DNA from: Mucidula mucida
Taxonomy: Eukaryota > Basidiomycota > Agaricomycetes > Agaricales > Physalacriaceae
DNA length: 64,000 bases
Direction: 5' to 3'
NCBI GenBank assembly: GCA_015501055.1
Contig: JADNYV010000031.1
Span: 242,927-306,926, forward strand
In this document: positions 17,872 to 59,960 of the stretch, one piece after another
Layout: each line of letters opens with the position of its first letter
Position numbering within the stretch: the stretch's first letter is position 1
Program-made: the position numbers and the translations under genes
Notes under the pieces: generated by a model
Database searches by the model: none
What the model was told of the DNA's origin: nothing
Seen by the model: only the letters and a program-made list of their open reading frames with translations

Positions 17872-20529
17872 GATGTGATGCGATGGGAGAGAAGAACATA
17901 CGTCGTGGGGTTTGAGCGACGGCAGCTCTGATTTCTGATATACGATGTTAACATCCAGAGTAAAAGAAAAAGAAGAAGATACAAACCTCGACAGGTGCCT
18001 GTACTACTTGTCCGTCCACGAGATGAAGAACGACAAAAGCCTGATTAGCCGCGAAGTTTGTTGCCATGATGCGATGAATATTCACAACTCAAAACGGTCG
18101 CAACATTATATATCGTGGCGCGCGTGCTCTAGCGGTCAAGACCCCGTTGGCGGTGAGTTACAATACCGGGTCGGTGGGCAACCCGCGTTTCAACTGGGGG
18201 AGTCCAAATGTGGACAGCAGAGGCGATGTCTGGGACGCTCGCGCTTCAACGCTTCGCGAGGCCAAGGGCTGAGACGATATTCGTTCACTTCCCGATTTCC
18301 GGCAGATTTCCGGAGACTCCGAGTGGGCACTCCACAGGAAAAGGTCATTCCGGTGACCGACCGAGAAAAAGGCAAGTCACCGGGATACCTACTCCCGAAC
18401 ACGAATAACACAAGCATCCACCACCGACCGCAAGAGATCAGAAGAAAAGCACTGTCGGCACGGTGAAATTGAGAACGGGAAATGTTGAGCCGATTCATGC
18501 ATGACATGGAATACCGTCCCACCTCCGATGATGGTTTTGGGCGCTCAACCTGACGTGGCGCGCCTCCCGAAACGACCAGGACACTTGGTTCGGAGTGCGG
18601 TTTTCTGTGTTCTAAAATGGGATTCAGATATGCGATAAGCAGGAGCAAAAAAAGTGCACTCACTTATCAAGGAGGACTTGGTAGTAGTAAATGCATTAGC
18701 CTTGTAGATCGCGGTGTTATAAGCTCCTATTGTCCCAGAGACACACAGGGCTGAGAAGAATTTCTAGCATCACTCACAATCAAGGAATATGATAGAAGGA
18801 TATGTCGAGAAATCCAGAGATAATTATGCCTTGAGGTTGGTTAAAGGATTGCTCAACGTTACAGCAAAAAGGGAGTCTAAAATACATTTATGAGTGGGGA
18901 TACGTGCGATCTACGGATACATTGAAAGTAAGCAAACCAGAAAAAAGCTATAACAGAAACAAGCTCATCAAGCAACAACACCACCCACAGCGCGGTCCCC
19001 CATCCCGCTCTTAACGTGTTCCGCATAATCAATGTTATACGCCTCCCCGCCCTGACCCAGCGCCGCCTTGTCGCCGAAAAAGTACGTCGAATTGCTTTTG
19101 CTAGCCGCAATCGCCTTGAGCTGGTCCAGCCTCCGCAGCTCCACAAGCGTCAACAACGCGCGCTGCCGATCTTCCGCCTTGACGTTGGCCTTGTCCACCG
19201 CTATGCTCTTCGCAATCTCCTCAACCTGCGCTGCGAGGGCCGATGCCTCCATCAGCGCTTGTTGCTGGCGAGCCTCCGCTTCACGGAAAACTGTTTTATA
19301 GCTCGCATCGGCTTCGTTCGCTTTGGCTTGCAAATGGCCCTCGCTCTCTAGGATGACGCGCTGCTTATTGCCCTCGGCGACGTTGATCTGGGCTTGGGTG
19401 TCGAGAAGCTGCTTTCGGCGGTTGCGCTCGGCTTCCATCTGGAGTTCTAGTTGACGCTGGAGGGACATGTAAGAATCTAGGCAAAATCTTGTAAGTGTTC
19501 GCGTACCTCGACCTCTCGATTGGCCGGTTGGAATGATTGAACTTCGAAACGTGTTCCCTCGACACCCCAGTTCTACACAATTGAATGAGTAGGTGAATAA
19601 AGAAAGAAAGAAATGAACGTACAGCCAAAGACGATCCGATAACTTGATTCAATTTACTGTTAATGCCGTTTCTGTCGCCGATAATCTGGGTAATAATGAG
19701 TGGGGATCTCCGTCAGTCGACCAAAGACATACTTGATCATAGCTGAAGGTTCCAAGAACTGCGCGCATAGCCGAGGTTCCAAAGTTCTGAATGTTTCTTT
19801 CTAGGTCGGTCACCTTGAAGCAAGCCTTGTAGCCATCGATGATGCGGTAGAACAGTGAGCCTGTAACGGTTATAGGGACCTGTAGAGGGTTTAGGTGACG
19901 CTGATAAACTCTAGAATTGACGGACATTGTCGAGAGTGTATCCCGAGAGCTGGAGAGCCGTAAGAAATCAGGGACCGCAGGAAATGAAGAGGACGGACAT
20001 GGGGTATGTTTATTGAACATTCACGCAAGTCGACTTTTTGTATGCTGTGGAACGGCGGGAGGAACAAGCGAATGCCGGGGTTGAGTCGCACTGGATTTCG
20101 ACCGAAGCTATTGAAATATCAGAATTCCGCTTAGCGCAAAGATGAAGAAAGCACCTAAGCCTCCATCCTTCTTGACCTTGCTCGATGATAGTGAAAAAGG
20201 TGCGCCTCCCTATGGGTGTGAGGCTCGGTCGGGCGCGCGACAGTACTCGAAGAGCTGGACGAGTATTCATCTTGGTGGAATGGTGGTAGTGAGAAGCGTC
20301 CTTAAAAGAGATCTTGGCAGAGAAGAGTGCTCTGCCGACAGTACGCGGCCATGCCTTGTCTGCCGAGCCGCGTCATAGCCTACGATCCGGGAGTGTTCGG
20401 GCGCTCAATCGTGCTTCTTGCTGCGGGACGCAATGTGCTAAACACCATGCAAAGCGGACTGCGCCGTACCGGTCGTCGATTTGGCTGATCCGCCTTGTAT
20501 GTTCATCTAGTACCATTGGCGGCGGACAA
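17872..20529 (+). repeat. segmental duplication, copy 2 (direct, pairs with 7326-10015)
   Basis: Same content and orientation as 7326-10015. Only this copy continues to the right into the deaminase-like gene, which suggests it is closer to the ancestral locus. The interval 17872-18967 has no convincing gene; its two overlapping minus and plus frames differ in length from those in the other copy because of small indels. Confidence 0.9.
18968..20270 (-). pseudogene. mitochondrial stomatin-like protein (SPFH family), copy 2
   Basis: Same exon order as the copy at 8405-9709, from the leader MNTRPALRVLSRARPSL at 20270 down to the coiled-coil C-terminal exon ending at 18968. The visible protein changes are few (for example KSIPVDK in copy 1 and KSIAVDK here; final V to A). 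Besides the extra base before FGRNP seen in copy 1, this copy has a short deletion after GWRLR and CAG changed to TAG just before the same exon. The 5' part is therefore more damaged, while the SPFH core and C-terminus are preserved. It sits head-to-head with the deaminase gene starting at 20782. Confidence 0.75.
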
Positions 20530-20781
20530 GGGCAATGGATGGCTTGGGCTCTGAGCGTCGTTGGCAGTGGTGATGAAATGAAGAGTGCATGGGTCGACGA
20601 TGAGGATGAAATGATCGCGATCGACAGACTCCATCATTACAGCGACCACGCGACAACGACGACGAGCCAATCATGCATAACAAGCCGCAGTTTTACCTCT
20701 CGCAGTGTATACAGGCGGCGTCCAAGGCGCGTTATATATTGTCCTTTTCCACCGTTCATTCTAACTGTTTCGCAGTCGCCC

Positions 20782-20965
20782 ATGTCCTTCACTCTTGGCT
20801 CCATCATCGTCAAAGGCGGCAAGATAATATCTACGGGGTATAACCATCAGCGCACCCACTACGACGAGCTCACCATCGACACCGCATTTGGGCGACCCGT
20901 CTCCATGCACGCCGAGATGCACGCCATCTTCAACTTGACTGGCGGCAGGGCTCCTCCCTTTAGGC
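20782..20965 (+). pseudogene. cytidine/deoxycytidylate deaminase-like gene, 5' part (split by transposon)
   Basis: From ATG 20782 the frame reads MSFTLGSIIVKGGKIISTGY and reaches the zinc-binding HAE motif at about residues 43-45 (VSMHAEMHAIFNLTGG). The frame is then cut by the transposon at 20966. The second half of the zinc site lies beyond the transposon, at 26693-27093. The family deaminates cytosine in nucleosides, nucleotides or RNA; the exact substrate cannot be told. The open frame extends upstream to 20314 but 20782 is the natural start, just after a CGCAG that could be a splice acceptor. Confidence 0.8.
20957..20965. repeat. 9-bp target site duplication, left copy
   Basis: CCTTTAGGC directly abuts the left terminal inverted repeat; the identical nine bases directly abut the right one at 26684-26692. 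Confidence 0.93.
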
Positions 20966-21116
20966 TAGCCAGGTAACCTAGCCTACAAAGTATGAGCAAG
21001 ACTCGATACAGTAGGCTAGGTAAACCGGCAGCAATAAAAAGCGTGAACATCTTTTGGCCATGTTTGGCACAGTCGGATCAGTCGGTCCGTAAGCTATTAT
21101 ACCATATGCGGATGGC
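20966..21116. repeat. left terminal inverted repeat, 151 bp
   Basis: Begins TAGCCAGGTAACC and is identical to the reverse complement of 26533-26683. It contains a perfect 11-bp inverted pair, ACCTAGCCTAC at 20976-20986 and GTAGGCTAGGT at 21011-21021, with a 24-bp gap. That is a plausible transposase-binding site. The first candidate start codon of the neighbouring gene (21106) lies inside it. Confidence 0.95.
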
Positions 21117-24100
21117 GAAATCCGATGCCTTTCTTCTGACAAGCAAGACGTCAATCCGTACGGGTACCCCTTCTTCCTCGCGCCCATCTGGGTTCGGAAT
21201 GCTCAATAAATCATATTCTACACCAAATCTGCGGCGTCTTGCGCCGGAATCGGTTGGGCAACACATCTTCTCCTTCTCTGGCAGGACTCCAAGGGGACGG
21301 CAGCCCAAATCCGTTCTATACACTGCGGACACGCCGTCGCGCGTCGGCAGGGATGGGATCGTTCATCCCGGATTGAATCGTTCACCATCTCCCATGCAGA
21401 TTGATGCTCCCGGCGCGTCGTTTGATCCCTCCCCATCGCCCATCACTGATGTAGCAGATGCACATCCATCTCCATCACCAAATACAACGAGCCTCCAAGC
21501 CGACGTGGATATGGATCAGACTGGTCTTGAGAGTGTAATGCCTGAGCCAGACCCTCCCTTCCCACCCTCTTCCTCCAGTATACCAAAACTATCATCCCTC
21601 TCGACTGTTCGCGATGGACGAAAGTTCCCTTACGCCGTCTCAACCCCAGGTGTACAGTCAAAGGCGCAGCTAGCGCTGGATGCACTCAAAGAGATCGATA
21701 TCGCACCTGGCGAGTTTTTCTACACCATCATGGACCGCCGAAACGCGCAATTCGATAAGACGCAGAACGGTTTCTACCGTCCCGACGGCGTGTATCTGAT
21801 ATACATCCTCACACTGATGTGGTGGTGGGCTAAGAAGAGGGTCCAGACATGGATGTCTCCGTTTGCGCAGGAGTATGCTTGCGGACAGATCAAGGAAGAG
21901 TTCGAGGCTAAGATGGAGAGCATGCGTATCAACGTCTCGGACGTGACTGCCGACTTTCTTTCCTCCTGGGATGTTAACTCCATCTTTGGATCTCGGCCGG
22001 ACGATACAGGCGAGGAGGTGTCGATAACTGGAGGGGAGGCTATGCCATGGTGGTACGCGATGTTGACTGCCGCGACCACGGGCTCGTACTCGTCGGTAAA
22101 CAAGGAGCATTATGCAGCTTTGGTCAGTGACCAAATCACGTACCGTCTATGTCTCTTACCTTTGACAACAGGCTCGGAATATATTGACGGCTCAAGCATT
22201 TCACGTCCGTTCGAATACGTGCTCCATGTATCAATTCATGTTTACCGTCTTTGCTTGGGCTACTGGCAGCTCAAAGAGAATGATCGAAGCTCTCAATCAC
22301 TCCGCTCTTTCCATGTCTTTTCCTACTGCTCTGAATACCATCTCCGCTCTTGCTACCCGCGCCGTTCAGCTAGGGAAAGCCTTTTCATTTGGACCTCACA
22401 TGTTCACATACGACAACGTCAACTTCAGCTCCTCCATCTTCGTTGAACAGGTTCCGGGGTCAATGCCGAAAGTCCAATCAGGCACTTTTCCTGTATTGTA
22501 CGAGCTCTGGGGCGTCCGACAAGCCTCAGATCTCCTACTACAGCCGATGTTGGACCGCCTCAAGAACGCTACTGATCTCACCTTCGCCGAGATACAGCCT
22601 CAGCGAGAAAATCAACGTTGCTATATGGCCCAATGCCATGTCACGATCGTAAAGACTCTGCTCCGATACGTCTCTGGCTTTACGGAGACCGATGAATACA
22701 CCTCTCACCCCAAGCTCCAACATATCCCTCGGCGCCCACTTCCCTTCCATTCCGTCAAGCGCTTCTACCCTCTCAAGGCATCGACCATCGAGGAAGCATC
22801 GATCGACGGAAACCTCTTGTTTCACGACGAAGTGTATATCAATCAGCTTGAACGCGATCCCGATGATCTTTCCGAGATGGCTATTCCCATTTTCCCAGAT
22901 CAGCTCACCTGTGCGCGGATTCGCGGCGCCCAGGCAGAGCGTGAAGGCGATATATCGGCATGGGAGACGCGCATGATCTTTCAGCTTGGGATTGGGCTAT
23001 TTCATCTAATCATGAATCTGGCTTGGTGTCTTCTTCACAAACATCGGTTCAGCCACTCACAGCATGGTTCTCTGGCGCACTACTTCCTTGTTTTGAACAA
23101 GAAGCGTCTGGCAGGGGAGAAGCCGGACTACCATACTCTTATGGCTGCACTGGGGCAGATTCGGGACGGTCTACTGATGGATGCCTGGCGCCAGAAGTGT
23201 GGATACGCGTCGCTGGCAGAGTTTTCCGCATCGAAGCCTACACCCGAGGCCCTGCTGAAGATTGCAGTAGAGATCCTGAATGAATTCGCGACACCGATCC
23301 CAGAACCACTGGATCCGAATGACGCGACTGAGACGAACCCCGCGAACGATGTGATCAATCAAAACACGCGTCTCCTCCTACGTGATCTGCTGTATCTCTG
23401 CGAGCTCACAACAGCTGTGTCGAGCGGTGATTTTGGACGTATTGAAGACATTCTACCGAACATCGCCGCCATTTTCCGTGGTGGTGGTTCTAACAACTAC
23501 TGCACGGAGATTCTCCATCTACTTCACAACTTCAAGCGTGTGTGGACATCCGAGTTTGCGTAAGTCCTGTAGCCAATAGATTTCTTGTCTCGAGACTTAT
23601 GTTTGCAGAGATATAATGCGCGATAACTTCCTGATGACGGTGTCTGGCCTACCAGGACATTTTATGCCGATCGACTTGAACACTGAGCATCTCATTGGAT
23701 ACCTGAAGCAGTTGTTCTCGTCTAAAGGCCTTTACGGCTCATGGGACCGACTCGGCGAAGTCTCCGCAGCTATTGTCGAGCTACAGGCTGTGAAAAAGCA
23801 TTTCGGGGCTATGATGGATACATCGTATAAGAGCACTACAAAAACACCTGCAGACGTCTCATCCCTTGTTTGGAAGATCGCGGATACTGTCCGGGAGTTG
23901 GAGGTACAGAAGGTCCTGGACAGTCGGGCGGGAAATTCAAGAGCCAAGGCTGCGCCAGACCTCCTTGCTGTTGGGCTGGCTAAGCTCGCGTCTTCGACAC
24001 TCCGGACTTTCAACAAGAAGATGCGAGCATTCGTCAATGGTACTGGCTTCGATGTGGCAGAGGAGGAGGTCAATGAGCTTGAAGCAGCTCAATTCTCCTT

Positions 24101-24128
24101 CGATAGTGATATTAGCAATGATGATTGA
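21106..24128 (+). CDS. DUF6589-type protein, candidate transposase of the TIR element
   Basis: Three exons: 21106-22122, 22172-23559 and 23609-24128, with 49-bp introns that keep phase; 974 residues. Residues 1 to about 200 are low-complexity and rich in Ser and Pro. The conserved part has MFTYDNVNFSSS (D420), FPDQLTCARIRG (D582), GIGLFHLIMNLAW and FRGGGSNNYCTEILHLLHNF, and ends in MPIDLNTEHLIGYLK (E828). This order (YDN, DQ, then a C-terminal E) is typical of DUF6589 proteins of mushroom genomes as I remember them. Their function is not established. A DDE-like nuclease role is my inference from the conserved acids and the TIR context. The frame is also open from ATG 20992, but that would place translation through most of the TIR, so 21106 or 21112 is preferred. 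Confidence 0.85.
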
Positions 24129-24170
24129 ACATAATTAGATGTAAGTATCGTATACTGGACTCTGGAGTAA

Positions 24171-26435
24171 TTAACGATGTCGTGAAGGCGAATTTGTAAC
24201 ATCCCGTAGCGGCCGAATACGAAAGGTAAGACGGGGTACTTCCTCAATCTCGCTAGCCTTTGTACGCTTTGCCTTTGATGCAGGAGCGGCATAACTGCGC
24301 GGCCGCTTGAGCGAAATGGGGTTGACTGTGTTGAATTGAATAAGAAAGGAGTGTAATGGTCTAGCCCATGAGCGCTCCCAATCAGCTGTCTGCCCAAGAT
24401 GCAACGATAGCATGGATGGTGATGCGAGAGCATCCGAGTCCGGACGCAGTTGAACAACGGACTTCATGTCCTGATCTGAAAGAATGAGATATTCCGGGTA
24501 GACTGCACGCAGATCATCGTTGAGATACTCCTTGCGGCGCCATGCTTTGAGAAGCGGTGCAAGCTTCTCCTGAGAGGCAGTGGGACGGTACTGATTGCGA
24601 GTAATAACAGTGGACAACTCCACTGCCTCGACAGGTGCAGGATCGAGTGGACCGGGAAGGAAATCCTGGAGACGGAAGCCGTCGTGATGACGGTCACAGC
24701 AGAATGTACCATTGTACTTCAAGGCTGCAACAAAGAGGTCAGAATGCTATAAAGAACATGAAAGGAGGAATGTACCATCATCAGATGTATCATGAAAATA
24801 GTCACGTAGAAAGCGCCGAATACAAAAGCCAATGGCGAGGAGTTGAATCAATCTGATTGGTGCAAATCCGGCGCGCTCTTGCTTTGTAGACTTCTCGGTA
24901 AGTTTGGCACGGGGACGATCAGGATCATCTCCAAACTCATTCATGAAGTCCCCTAAACAGATTTCGTCTGCGTCGGCTGCCCATGCCTCATAGAAAGTGA
25001 TATATATCCCAATCTTGTCAATGATGCGAACGGCTCGGCCACCGCACTGTGCGCTGTAGGGTATATCTGCAGGTACATCGTTATTGACCACAATGGCAAC
25101 ATCACGAAAATCAACGCCCTGGGTAGCATTGTGTCAAGGAGAGTTATTCTAGATGAGAGTAGACTCACCGTTGACTCGCCAGACGTCGAAAATAGGATAC
25201 GACAAGCACCCTCTGGATCTGTGAAAGCCTTATGGGTGCGACGAAGATATCTCTTTGACATTTTGCTGTGATAGTGTCGAATGATCCCTTTCTTGCGGAG
25301 ATTTGCAGGAAGGAATTCTGTCAAAGCTTTTGCAAGCGCCCGGGTCTGACCTTTTGTACGACAAAAGACAAGAACTCGAGGCTGCGTGATAGGATCTATA
25401 TCACGAAGAAGACATCGGTAGTTGTTAACATCGTCGATTGATCCCTTGACCTGATGCATTGCATAGATCGTGTTCGGGCGGTTGACCGTGATGCGATGGG
25501 TTTGATGATCCGCAGCCAGGATACCAAGATTCTGGATGCTGGCTTCTACATGAGGAGGACAGGTTGCCGTCATGCCAAGCCAGGGGACGGAAGACGGGAA
25601 CAGAGCCTTGATCTCGCTGAGCCTGCCCCAGGTTGGTCGAAAGGCGGGAAGACCATATCGACTGATACCCGCGTAGTGCGCAGTGTGTACCTCATCAACA
25701 AAGAAGTATCGCACATATTTTCGAAAAGCTGGGTTACGAAGATATTGACCCATCCTTGGGAGATGTCCCTGCGGATTGGTAAAGCATTGCTCAGTTGTTA
25801 CAATGAGATGGCGCGCTCTTCCTGGAGATCGCGTCGAAAAGTTGAAGACGTTCTCCTTTAGGACATTCTGAGTTACATGTTACAGTAGAAATACTTCAAG
25901 TAGACTTACAGCCCAATACTCTGCATCGCGCGGTGTATCGTCATTGATGCAAACTGTAGGGATCCCATATTTATCATTGAAGACTTGTGCCTGTAATCAC
26001 ATCAATCAGAAGGTCGAGGACCGGGACACCATAGAACACAAGTACCTGTGTGATTTGCAGTCGCTGTAGGGGAGATATCGTAATGGCGATGGAGAATACA
26101 CGTTCCATGAGAAGAAGAAGCACCATCATGAGTGTCTTTCCCGATCCTGTTCCAGCAATAGCAAGCACGTCGCCCTTACGGGCATAGATAGCAAGTGCGA
26201 CCTCGAGTTGATTCTGCCGTGGAATCTCCATATGTAACGTTCTTTCCCAGACTAGGAGGCAGAAGCGCAAAGCAACTGTCTTTGGGTCTGGATCAAGGGT
26301 GTGAATGAAGTCCCACGGAACAAGGTCCCTCGGAAGGACGCGCATCCGGTCACATAAAGAGACCAAAGACGCGTCCAGTATAACTTGTGTAGCTGCCACC
26401 TGGGACGCGTCCAGCACCGCCAAAGGTGAAGACAT
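24171..26435 (-). CDS. RecQ-like superfamily 2 DNA helicase of the TIR element
   Basis: Five exons on the minus strand: 26435-26046, 25990-25910, 25867-25169, 25118-24776 and 24724-24171. Introns are 42-55 bp and the phase is kept throughout; 688 residues. Motifs in order: a Q-like element (IPRQNQLEVALAI, about 71-83), Walker A AGTGSGKT (94-101), DEVH (215-218), LGMTAT (about 254-259), VLVFCRTKG, motif V as ILFSTSGESTVGVDF, and motif VI QCGGRAVR (414-421). The C-terminal region has a possible Cys/His site (FCCDRHHDGF) and a basic tail. RecQ helicases unwind DNA 3' to 5'; here it could process transposition intermediates. The start lies about 100 bp inside the right TIR, so that TIR probably carries the promoter. 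Confidence 0.9.
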
Positions 26436-26532
26436 AATTAGTTTATAGTATGATTACGTTTGAGACATGAAAAGAGTGTGGGGAGGGTTACCAGTGTCGA
26501 AATAAAATCTTGCAGGAGGAGGCGTAATTTTT

Positions 26533-26683
26533 GCCATCCGCATATGGTATAATAGCTTACGGACCGACTGATCCGACTGTGCCAAACATGGCCAAAAGAT
26601 GTTCACGCTTTTTATTGCTGCCGGTTTACCTAGCCTACTGTATCGAGTCTTGCTCATACTTTGTAGGCTAGGTTACCTGGCTA
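26533..26683. repeat. right terminal inverted repeat, 151 bp
   Basis: Reverse complement of 20966-21116 with no differences. It ends CCTGGCTA and is followed at once by the second target-site copy. It faces the helicase start at 26435, so each gene of the element is preceded by the same 151 bp. Confidence 0.95.
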
Positions 26684-26692
26684 CCTTTAGGC
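26684..26692. repeat. 9-bp target site duplication, right copy
   Basis: CCTTTAGGC, identical to 20957-20965. Confidence 0.93.
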
Positions 26693-27473: not shown

Positions 27474-30400
27474 CAGTCATCCACCACTCAACAGGACAAC
27501 ACCACTCAACAGGACAAGTGCCCCGGAACCACTCCACAGGCTCCGATTGCCCTCGGACCTTAGCTCTAACATTACTCGATGATGTAGTATGCCTTTAGAT
27601 GACTTCCGAAGCGATTGAATGCAGTATAATTCGTTGACTCTATCATTGTCAGATAGCTTGATGCTGAATATGTGCTTGCACATTTTTTGAGCAGCTCACT
27701 CTCTAAGTCTCACTCAAAATATTATGGTATATCACAGATATGCCCGAATGTACACTCTCCAAGCCAGTAAGTGAGTGTACGCTGTTTACAGCCCATATCT
27801 TGGAGACGCGCTTGAAATCACTGTCACATTCCAAAAGGAGATCAATGACACATGTACACGTTTGTCATAGCAATCAGTTGCTCTTTGCGTCGCTTCACAC
27901 AACGCGGTTTATCAGACGTGCAATGGTCGGTTGAGCTCACTCGGACTCACAGAAAAAAAGGGAACATAGTGCTATAAAGGAGAAATGGATGCTTTGGGCT
28001 GTGGAGCAATACCGCAACGGCAAGAGAGTGCTAAGGAAAATGCAGCTCTCACTCCAAAGAGTGCACAAGCGGTCTGCTCGGATATCGAGGAGCAATGTTG
28101 GCAAGCAGATCATGTTTGCATCAAATTACACCGCAGTACTATGCTTCAGAGATACCAAGGACGGCTGAGCAAGGCAGAACATGCAAACAAAGAGAAGGGC
28201 TGGCTAAATACGAAGGAGCAGGACAAAGTTGTGGACTACTGCATCAAACTGGCCAACCGCGGCTTTCTCTCACTCTCCAGCGTATTAAGGAGATTGGGGA
28301 AAAGATTGCACGAGGCCGTCACGGCAACGCCTTCCCAGACGAGGGACTGGGAAAGAATTGGGCGGGCCGCTTCCGCGAGAAGCACTCAAGCCGTCTCTCC
28401 AGTTATTGGACTCATGGACTTGATCACTCGAGGGCTAGTGCAGTCAATCCAACAACCAAGGAAGCCTACTTCAAGCTCCTGGCCGATGTCATACGCGGAG
28501 ATGGAACCAAAGAGGATAAGATAGCCAATGAGCTGAAATATGGTGCCGACAAAACTGGCATGCAACAAGGAGTTGGAGGTTGAGAACGGGTTGTTGGACC
28601 TAAGGGCAAGTCTGTTCAGCATCAACAGCAGGGCGGTGACCGCAAAAACATTACCGTTTTGTGTACCATTTGCGCAGACGGGACATCACTTCCACCGGCA
28701 GTAATTTTCAAAGGGGAGTACTTTCAGACATCATGGGCCCAAGAGAACCCTTTAAACGCCTCGTAAGTGATGTCCTTCTTTATAATTGTGGGTTCTGAAT
28801 CTTACCATAATAGAATTGGACATTCGAAGAAAGGATACATTGACGGCGAGATTGGTATTCTCTGGATCAAGCAGTTTGATCAGCAAATAAAGGCGAAGGC
28901 TTGTGGGCAACGGCGCTTACTAATAGTTGACGGGCACAGCTCTCACTATACGCTTGAGTTCCTGGACTATGCAAAAGTGCATTGCATTGAGGTGCTTTGC
29001 TATCCATCCCACTCCACCCATGTGTACCAGGGGCTCAATGTCGTTATCTTCGCCGTTGTGAAACAGTGTTTTTGCAAGGAGCGGACTGCCTATGAGCGGC
29101 GTACGGGAAGGAAAGTTGTTAAGGCTGTCTTTCTGTCAGTTTATGGCGCTGCTCATGTCAAAGCCTTTACCCGGGAGAACATACTCTCCGCCTTTCGAAA
29201 GACTGAAGTGGTTCGTTTCAACCCCAACATCATTACCGCTGAGCAGATGGCACCCGCACTTGCATCATCATCACAAAGTGCCCTTCCGGTTGCCCTGTCC
29301 ACTCCCAAGCGTGTCGCCTCCCATCTCCTTCTAGATCTGAAAACCCACACACATCAGAATCTGTTATCTGCACTAACAGATGTCACAAACTCACCGTCAA
29401 CGGGTACCCCAGTGGCTCAAAACCTGCTCGACACTTTTGCGCGGTTGTCATCATCATTGACGTACACATTCCTTACTCCTGAACATATCACCTCCGACAT
29501 AATCCCTCCACAATACGATTCAACTCCCATTTCACCAATCAGAATGAAACACCGATTTGAGGAACTCCTAAATACTGAACCAAAAACTTGGCATGAGCGC
29601 AATCTTCACAATGCCCTGGTTGACTCACAGGAAAATGAGTGAGGTCTCAAGCGGCAGGTTGTCTGCCTTCAGACGGGCATGATCATGGTGAATGCATATG
29701 TTGGGCAGAGTCAAACCCAGCTTCATGAAGACGAGGAGCATAAAAAGAAGAAGGCAAAGGGCTCTGGGCAACTAAATGTGGATGGAATGCCCAAGCTTTT
29801 CACAGGACCAGAGTTTATAACAGCTGCTAAAAAGCATCATGATGAGAAGAATGCATGGGAGAAGGAAAAAGAACAACGTGCAGAGGAAGGGACCAAGTTC
29901 ACGACTGAACTGGCTGCATGGAAGACGAAAGAGGCAGCTTGCGTAGACCGCAATAACCTGAAGCATGCGGATCACAAAACGGTGGTGGCTGCATGGAAGA
30001 CAGAGTCGGAGCGTGCGAAGAGGGAGAAGAGGTGTCCGGGATGGCTCAAAACAAAGTTGGGTGAGTTGGAAAAGGGGTTGTCAAGGCCAAAGAAATCGGT
30101 GGCAGTCCCTTCATTGAGCACATTGCGCACCTCTCATCCGGATGAGGGTGGCGACGACAACAATGACATGATGGATGTGGAAGAAGATGATGAACACAAG
30201 TTTGACTCTGATGGACCCAAGGACGAGTAGATCCGATATGCCGAGGTGTCTCCATAAGGCAAATCAGTGTGATGTAATGTTGTCCTGTTGAATGGAGTGC
30301 TTCCGATAAGCGGCTGTTGACTAGACTCACTGTTTACACAGATCCACTTGCTCTCAAAGCCCTCCAATTGTATGCAGAAATCATTATATTAAATAGTTAA

Positions 30401-58239: not shown

Positions 58240-58252
58240 TCACCCCCTCTTT
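58240..58252 (-). promoter_or_regulatory. polypurine tract
   Basis: The element-sense strand reads AAAGAGGGGGTGA directly before the 3' LTR, the position where plus-strand DNA synthesis starts. It overlaps the integrase stop codon. Confidence 0.75.
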
Positions 58253-59960
58253 AAGGCGCAAGTTCCATTCTGCGCCAGAGTCGCTCCATGAGGGCCGCAG
58301 AGGGTAGTGTGACGTCAAGGGGTTCAGTGTCAGGCAGTGGCATGGGTCGGAACAGATGTGATGGAAATTGCGACATGGGGACTTCAATGCGAGCAAGCGC
58401 GGATGGCTTCGGCTTGTTCGGATATTGTTGGTGGAAATTGCTGATAGCTTCGTCGGCATTTTTGAGATTGCATGCCGGTTCCCATGTCTGCTCGTGTGTG
58501 CCGTAACCCTTCCAGTGAACCTTGTATTGAAAACCCCCGCGGTACTTCCGGGAATTCACCACTTTCTCAACCTCCCATTCCGGTTCGGCTCCTTCCAGCA
58601 CAGGTGGTGGACGCGTGTCTCGGGGTTGCGTCGGAAATTGCGGCTCGTGGTAAGGCGTCAACAGGGCCTCATTGAACACGGGATGAATGCTTTTCCACGT
58701 GTGAGGAATCTGGAGCTTGTAAGAGCTCGTCCCGACTTTCTTGATCACTTTGAACGGCCCGAATCGTTTGTCATTGAGCTTCTTCATTGTTCGATCCGTG
58801 CTGAGATTCGTCCCTTCCAGCCATACTTTGTCGCCTTCCTTGTACTCCACTGCCTCTGTCCGTTTCCTGTCATAAAACCGTTTCATATCCTCTTTGGCCA
58901 TCTTCAATGCCGACCCCACTTCGTCCCATGTTTTCCTCATGCCGTCGGCAAACTCCTGTGCAGTCTCATTTCTCGATGCCGTTTTCGGGGCGGTGCCTTT
59001 GTAGGGATGTCTGCCCATGTCTGCAAAGAACGGAGTGACTTTAGTTGCCGAGTGTACCCGATCATTGTAAACAACTTCGGCAGAGGGTAGCCATTCGTGC
59101 CAGTCGTTCTGATGGTAGTTGACAAATAACCGTAAGAAATGTTCTATCTCTTGGTTCAGCCGTTCCGTCTGCCCATTTGCCTGTGGATGATACGCCGTTG
59201 TAAAGTTTCCTTGTATGCCCAACAACCGGTACAACTCCTTCATAAAACACGAGTGGTATTGTGGACCGCGATCATGTATCACCTGGCGTGGCATCCCATG
59301 TATGGGGAAAATGCGATCTCGGTAGATGCGGGCCATGCCTTCTGACGTCAGAGTGGTGTGTGTTGGTATGATGCGTAATTGCTTTGTAAAATGGTCCACA
59401 AACGTGCTGATGGTGTTGTATCCTCCCGATTCCGGCAGCTCTCCAATCATGTCCGTCCCTACTATTTCCCATGGCTCGCTTGGCACATCAATAGGATGAA
59501 GAGGTGCAGCCGGCTTCGTGCGATGTGACTTGGTGACCTGGCATTTTTGACACCCTTCTATGTATTCCCGGACGTCTCGGCTGATTCCTGGCCACCAATA
59601 GGTGCGTGTGATCAGCTCGAGGGTCTTGTATCGTCCAGGATGCCCTGCAAGCTGTGCATCATGGTGCATTCCAATAACTCTTCCCCGCAATTCCTTGTCC
59701 TTCGGTATGTAAATACGATCCTTCCACATAATAAGTCCATTTTCCTTCTCTTCCCATCCTTTTTCTTTGTTTTCTAATGCTTTTTGTACGTATCTGTCTT
59801 TGTTTCCTTTTCTTTGTTTGATTTTGTTAAGTAATTCGTCCTCCGGTGTATCTACTGTATGTAAAGAAAATTGAATTTGTGAAATAAAAAACTCCGGCTT
59901 GAGCAAAACAACGTTTTCGTTATCTTTTTCCCCCTTCTCAAGGCCTGTCATCCTTGACAA
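58251..59960 (-). CDS. gypsy integrase with C-terminal chromodomain
   Basis: Intact 569-codon frame. The zinc-binding N-terminal HHCC part ([20 protein letters not shown] ... CQKCQ) is followed by the catalytic core with [20 protein letters not shown] and [11 protein letters not shown], supplying D, D and E. A GPF/Y-like module ([18 protein letters not shown]) comes next. The chromodomain is [20 protein letters not shown], then [18 protein letters not shown]. Chromodomains guide such elements to methylated heterochromatin. The frame is separated from the RNase H part by one missing base near 59970 (KTMGKADALS region), so the true polyprotein is interrupted there. Confidence 0.93.

What the first reader, a model, noticed from the sequence alone, without database searches (positions are those of the whole stretch)
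20966..26683. TIR transposon built from a DUF6589-type gene and a RecQ-like helicase
Seen: perfect 151-bp inverted ends, perfect 9-bp target duplication, two intact convergent spliced genes and nothing else. Known: RecQ-type helicases recur in fungal subtelomeres and mobile DNA, and DUF6589 proteins are abundant in mushrooms without an assigned role. Inference: the pair is a self-contained mobile element in which DUF6589 is the transposase and the helicase is an accessory. This would give a function to a large orphan family.
Basis: partly seen in the sequence, partly recalled or inferred. Interest (0 to 1): 0.92.

Follow-up and report, generated by a model that had tools for sequence, protein, structure and literature searches.

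The report
AcademH-type transposon with DUF6589 transposase
A jumping gene in a mushroom genome that carries its own cutting enzyme and a DNA-unwinding helper; it belongs to an already described kind of mobile element, but it shows what the large unexplained protein family DUF6589 most likely does.

Summary
Window 20966-26683 has 155-bp inverted ends (one mismatch; first 151 bp perfect), a 9-bp duplication CCTTTAGGC, and two convergent spliced genes: DUF6589 and a RecQ-like SF2 helicase.

It is a mobile element. Four other long copies are 99.4-99.9% identical; three of them have their own 9-bp duplications. Short copies share the ends. Sites without the element and with a single 9-mer were found for 4 of 6 insertions tested, not for the window's.

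DUF6589 is most likely the transposase. Of 11 diverged DUF6589 loci, 4 have TAG-type ends plus exact 9-bp duplications, against 0 of 840 controls; 9 have a helicase nearby, two of them weak. Two models have DDE transposases and RAG1 as best structural matches, and D, D, E are conserved.

The kind is known: AcademH, helicase-bearing transposons with 9-10-bp duplications (passages). Its founding paper and sequences were not held, so sequence membership is untested. The link DUF6589 = AcademH transposase was not found in the held library. Interest is moderate.

The parts
20957..20965 (.). left target-site duplication CCTTTAGGC
   Evidence: identical to 26684-26692
20966..21120 (+). left terminal inverted repeat, starts TAGCCAGGTAACC
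   Evidence: 155 nt, 1 mismatch to right arm; recurs genome-wide
20992..24128 (+). DUF6589 gene, predicted DDE transposase; exons 20992(or 21199/21394)-22122, 22172-23559, 23609-24128
   Evidence: GT-AG introns and open frame; Pfam PF20231 E 2.4e-95; AlphaFold/VIA matches to DDE transposases
22412..22414 (+). codon of predicted first catalytic Asp (YDNVN)
   Evidence: conserved 74 of 76 in its column of A1; position
22898..22900 (+). codon of predicted second catalytic Asp (PDQLT)
   Evidence: conserved 70 of 72; position
23003..23005 (+). [quoted passage not shown]
   Evidence: 77 of 77; signature as described in PMC9587614 passage; equivalence is my inference
23685..23687 (+). codon of predicted catalytic Glu (NTEHL)
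   Evidence: conserved 56 of 58; position
24171..26435 (-). RecQ-like SF2 helicase gene, 688 aa; exons 26435-26046, 25990-25910, 25867-25169, 25118-24776, 24724-24171
   Evidence: Pfam DEAD and Helicase_C; nearest solved chains Bloom helicase E 5e-10 over residues 68-422
26529..26683 (-). right terminal inverted repeat
26684..26692 (.). right target-site duplication CCTTTAGGC

Best explanation
This is an apparently complete, recently active DNA transposon of the AcademH type. The DUF6589 protein is its DDE transposase (RNase H-like core, large helical insertion before the catalytic Glu). It would recognise the TAG-starting inverted ends, cut the element out, and join it to target DNA with a 9-base stagger, whose repair gives the 9-bp duplications. 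The same protein would also mobilise the short copies that share the ends. The RecQ-like helicase is an accessory encoded by the element, probably unwinding or remodelling DNA at the transposon ends or at the gapped insertion product. Shown here: ends, duplications, dispersed copies, sites without the element, recurrent gene pairing. Predicted: fold and catalytic residues. Inferred: catalysis by DUF6589, cut-and-paste rather than copy-out, and any role of the helicase.
Confidence: 0.87

Rival explanations
1. DUF6589 elements are a separate, undescribed DDE superfamily that resembles AcademH in helicase and duplication length only.
For: No Academ reference sequence could be compared. Pfam shows DUF6589 without any other transposase family. 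No paper with the word DUF6589 was found in the held library.
Against: Helicase, 9-bp duplications, TIRs, fungal host and element size all fit published descriptions of AcademH or Academ (passages).
Confidence: 0.08
2. It is a Mutator-like element (MULE): long TIRs and 9-bp duplications, with a diverged MULE transposase.
For: 9-bp duplications and long TIRs are MULE-like (recalled); the IS256 transposase ISCth4 is among the structural matches (its kinship to Mutator is recalled).
Against: No MULE Pfam match listed for the window protein or for 8 relatives (HMMER filters hide most matches above about 0.1); recurrent helicase gene.
Confidence: 0.04
3. DUF6589 and helicase are passengers, and another transposase, such as hAT, moves the TAGCCAGG-ended elements.
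For: One TAGCCAGG-ended copy (C300) contains a hAT-like ORF (called hAT from recalled motifs, not scanned against Pfam).
Against: That ORF lies in an insert nested in an 880-bp short copy, with its own 8-bp duplication ACATGTTC. Diverged DUF6589 elements with different end sequences also have 9-bp duplications.
Confidence: 0.02
4. It is KolobokH, the other fungal DNA transposon with a RecQ helicase.
For: KolobokH encodes a RecQ helicase and is known only from fungi (passage of PMC9587614).
Against: Kolobok duplications are TTAA (recalled), not 9 bp; [quoted passage not shown]
Confidence: 0.005

Closest known systems
AcademH DNA transposons (Kojima 2020, Mob DNA 11:15; paper not held, known here from passages in PMC10045372 and PMC10799480)
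   Same: DNA transposon with an SF2 helicase and 9-bp duplications (AcademH 9 or 10); reported from Basidiomycota among others.
   Different: Transposase sequence could not be compared with an AcademH reference; no difference seen in what could be compared.
AcademX / other Academ
   Same: Same superfamily if AcademH holds; curated bivalve Academ elements have a mean length of 5565 bp (passage), here 5718 bp.
   Different: AcademX makes 3- or 4-bp duplications and carries a nuclease instead of a helicase (passage).
KolobokH
   Same: Fungal DNA transposon with RecQ helicase (passage).
   Different: TTAA duplications (recalled); [quoted passage not shown]
hAT (Hermes) and P element transposases
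   Different: No hAT or P Pfam match; 9-bp instead of 8-bp duplications (8 bp for hAT: passage; for P recalled); the C/D of the signature is Gly here (G399, H402).

Membership tests
AcademH | encodes a DDD/E transposase | tested here: met
   predicted fold with DDE transposases as top structural matches and conserved D, D, E; prediction only, activity not tested
AcademH | transposase sequence similar to Academ reference transposases | not testable with these tools
   reference paper and sequences not held
AcademH | encodes an SF2 / RecQ-family helicase | tested here: met
   window; helicase stretches at 9 of 11 diverged loci, two weak
AcademH | 9- or 10-bp target-site duplications | tested here: met
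   9 bp in the window and, perfect, at 14 of 21 other loci
AcademH | terminal inverted repeats | tested here: met
   155 bp, 1 mismatch
AcademX | 3- or 4-bp duplications and a nuclease gene | tested here: not met
   9-bp duplication; no nuclease family in either protein, ResIII being part of the helicase match
KolobokH | TTAA target-site duplication (recalled) | tested here: not met
   CCTTTAGGC and other 9-mers
MULE/Mutator | MULE transposase domain (PF10551; accession passage) | tested here: not met
   no such match listed for the window protein or 8 relatives
hAT | 8-bp duplications and hAT transposase domain | tested here: not met
   9-bp duplications; no hAT Pfam match listed
P element | P-type transposase domain | tested here: not met
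   no P-type Pfam match listed; structural resemblance only

The most novel reading that the evidence does not exclude
DUF6589 defines a DDE transposase superfamily of its own, not Academ: TAG-ended transposons with 9-bp duplications whose Hermes/P-like transposase, with GxxH in place of C/DxxH, works with an element-encoded RecQ-like helicase.
Probability: 0.09. Interest if true: 0.7.

Novelty: new member of a known kind. Interest (0 to 1): 0.42.

Why it matters
PF20231 is labelled 'family of unknown function'. All 110 relatives listed carried it; I could assign 88 of them to a named fungus, and the names shown were hypothetical, uncharacterized or DUF6589 protein. Reading DUF6589 as the transposase of AcademH-type elements would let annotators treat these genes as transposons, and would make a little studied kind of element testable: here is a copy with both genes open, defined ends, short non-autonomous copies as ready substrates, and a partner helicase whose need can be asked directly. 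The Pfam model starts after the first catalytic Asp (compare), which may be why the family was not recognised (my inference).

Tried and rejected
A hAT-like ORF inside one TAGCCAGG-ended copy (C300) first looked like a rival mobiliser; its insert is nested in an 880-bp short copy with its own 8-bp duplication.

Contig C788 looked like a 16.2-kb circle with one element; its flanks do not form a duplication, so I read it as two copies collapsed by the assembly with about 10.5 kb of other DNA between.

The IMG/VR scan with the DUF6589 profile found 94 pattern matches and no confirmed relative. PDB sequence search with the DUF6589 profile found nothing at E <= 10. Foldseek against PDB gave no match at E <= 0.001; Mutator-type eukaryotic transposases did not appear in the VIA lists, which says nothing against them.

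Termini with a duplication were not found for C689 (which has a 178-bp perfect inverted repeat, but no duplication), C118 (fetched from the contig start, so its left end may be missing), C104, C73, C849 and C652, and only weakly for C440. The window site and C616b gave no clean site without the element.

Literature (held library only): DUF6589 (none), PF20231 (one unrelated paper), RecQ/transposon/Agaricomycetes (none, listing), KDZ transposons (listing, passages), AcademH, Academ terms (listings). Every paper cited was seen as passages only, not whole.

Full report
What is there. The window holds an element of 5718 bp (20966-26683) with inverted ends of 155 bp (one mismatch at position 152), flanked by the identical 9-mer CCTTTAGGC. 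Inside are two tail-to-tail genes with short introns that I placed at GT-AG sites. One encodes a DUF6589 protein (up to 1012 aa), the other a 688-aa RecQ-like SF2 helicase. The helicase matches solved Bloom helicase over residues 68-422 (E 5e-10). Pfam shows DEAD, Helicase_C and ResIII in it. The zinc-binding domain PF16124 that is precomputed for all five distant RecQ relatives in the listing (P0153-P0157) is absent from the 42 nearer ones (P0111-P0152).

It moves. The left end was searched in the same genome (59.9 Mb, 1047 contigs), which listed 40 matches; counts are lower bounds. Besides the window these fall at 23 loci: 21 were examined, C788 separately in the same call, and the relic at C427:125912. 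Of the 21, 14 have a perfect 9-bp duplication, two match at 8 of 9, and in five no terminus pair was found by the exact pattern. The 14 sequences all differ. One of the 8-of-9 loci (C394) has nearly the same duplication as C377 and is probably the same insertion in a second haplotype. Three of the 14 are long copies (C616 twice, C495), ten are short copies of 880 or 1037-1048 bp, and one (C300) is an 880-bp copy with a nested insert that has an 8-bp duplication of its own. The two short copies compared (C1 and C191) match the window element at their ends only. The five long copies, including the window's and C788 read across its contig ends, are 99.4-99.9% identical. C788 shows no duplication. 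In the window copy both genes are open from the first ATG. C616a and C616b have an open helicase; C788 has an open DUF6589 but a broken helicase; C495 is broken in both. C616b also keeps an 878-aa DUF6589 frame from the later ATG, so it would count as open in both genes if that is the true start.

Sites without the element. The joined flanks of six insertions were searched. Four gave a full 500-base match elsewhere in the assembly with a single copy of the 9-mer: C738 (site in C505, 97%), C205 (C814, 99%), C616a (C391, 100%) and C495 (C194, 99%). C616b gave only diverged relatives (86% or less), and the window site gave only itself. Whether these are second haplotypes or duplicated loci is not known; the C616a flanks have several relatives. 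They show the state before insertion or after precise excision.

The DUF6589 family as a whole behaves as a transposon family. A Pfam search of the genome found 30 matching stretches. I fetched the 11 DUF6589 loci outside the window's own subfamily (L015-L025). Four (C738, C205, C230, C427) have TAG...CTA ends matching at 12 or more of 15 bases together with an exact 9-bp duplication; one (C440) has the duplication with weak ends (7 of 15); six have none found. In 840 first-order Markov sequences made from these and three further loci, 10 had any such pair and none reached 12 of 15, so the C440 case may be chance. Helicase stretches were found near DUF6589 in 9 of the 11, none in C849 and C652; the C104 and C440 hits are weak, and E-values there are for a small set of ORFs. 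Of the seven of these loci whose helicase piece was scanned against Pfam, four passed a helicase cut-off (C738, C689, C73, C427), two were below it (C205, C440) and one short piece (C104) had no match. The genes are tail to tail in seven of the nine and head to head in C738 and C104 (coordinates). C205, C230 and C118 are one subfamily, and C689 and C73 look alike, so these are not 11 independent cases; C205 and C230 do have different duplications. Three further relics chosen because of their helicase (L043, L044, L046) also pair the two genes; two of them have 9-bp duplications, with ends matching at 11 and 12 of 15.

Other species. DUF6589 relatives with a species name are fungi, mostly of genera I know as Agaricomycetes (110 proteins, 88 assigned by me). 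Of 41 helicase relatives that I could assign to a named fungus, 25 come from species that also have a listed DUF6589 protein, and 11 of these 25 have the same longest-contig length as that DUF6589 protein, in 11 of 18 species (table typed, both capped listings). Two are consecutive by locus tag (PM082_009383 and 009384).

What it is called. AcademH is described as making 9- or 10-bp duplications, and AcademX 3- or 4-bp ones (PMC10045372, passages). PMC10799480 (passages) reports AcademH as low-copy elements in Basidiomycota, Ascomycota and Mucoromycota and ties DEAD and Helicase_C domains to AcademH, KolobokH and Helitron. PMC6416283 (passage) says fungal Academ copies carry a DEAD/RecQ-family helicase and are often annotated as host genes. 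The founding paper (Kojima 2020) was not held, so I could not compare sequences. The element meets each AcademH feature that I could test. I file it as AcademH-type with about 87% confidence and regard the transposition itself as practically certain.

Mechanism. Shown: ends, duplications, multiple recent insertions, sites without the element, paired genes. Predicted: DDE fold and catalytic residues. Inferred: DUF6589 cuts at the TAG ends and integrates with a 9-base stagger; the helicase helps by unwinding at ends or gaps. PMC10045372 (passage) suggests that the difference in duplication length between the Academ lineages is related to the helicase or nuclease; no experiment here bears on that.

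Noticed in passing
window 20293-20965 and 26693 onward: The element sits inside an ORF with a cytidine/deoxycytidylate deaminase zinc-binding region (PF00383, E 2.7e-6), which it seems to interrupt.
   Followed up: partly
window 28767-29642 (+): ORF with a DDE_1 transposase domain (E 1.2e-13), a second, unrelated DNA transposon relic about 2 kb from the element.
   Followed up: no
window 58251-59960 (-): ORF with integrase zinc-binding, Tf2-1-like SH3 and chromo domains: part of a Ty3/Gypsy-type chromovirus retrotransposon (name recalled; domains).
   Followed up: no
G000:C788 (L009, L045, L010): A 16,208-bp contig whose two ends abut inside one element copy, so it looks circular; the flanks do not form a duplication, so probably two copies collapsed in assembly.
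   Followed up: partly
L015:3983-8989 (C738): A DUF6589/helicase element with head-to-head genes, both apparently without the N-terminal part (no Walker A pattern found), inverted ends only 86% alike, yet with a site without the element elsewhere in the assembly.
   Followed up: partly
window 20992-21120 and 26529-26657: The inverted repeat itself is an open frame starting MSKTRYSRLG on both sides; on the helicase side it runs into a stop before the helicase ATG.
   Followed up: no
Pfam PF20231: The Pfam DUF6589 model leaves out the first predicted catalytic Asp, which lies before its start.
   Followed up: partly
G000:C616:125403-140694: Two nearly identical long copies (99.93%) lie about 4 kb apart in opposite orientation with different duplications, which may reflect local hopping.
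   Followed up: no
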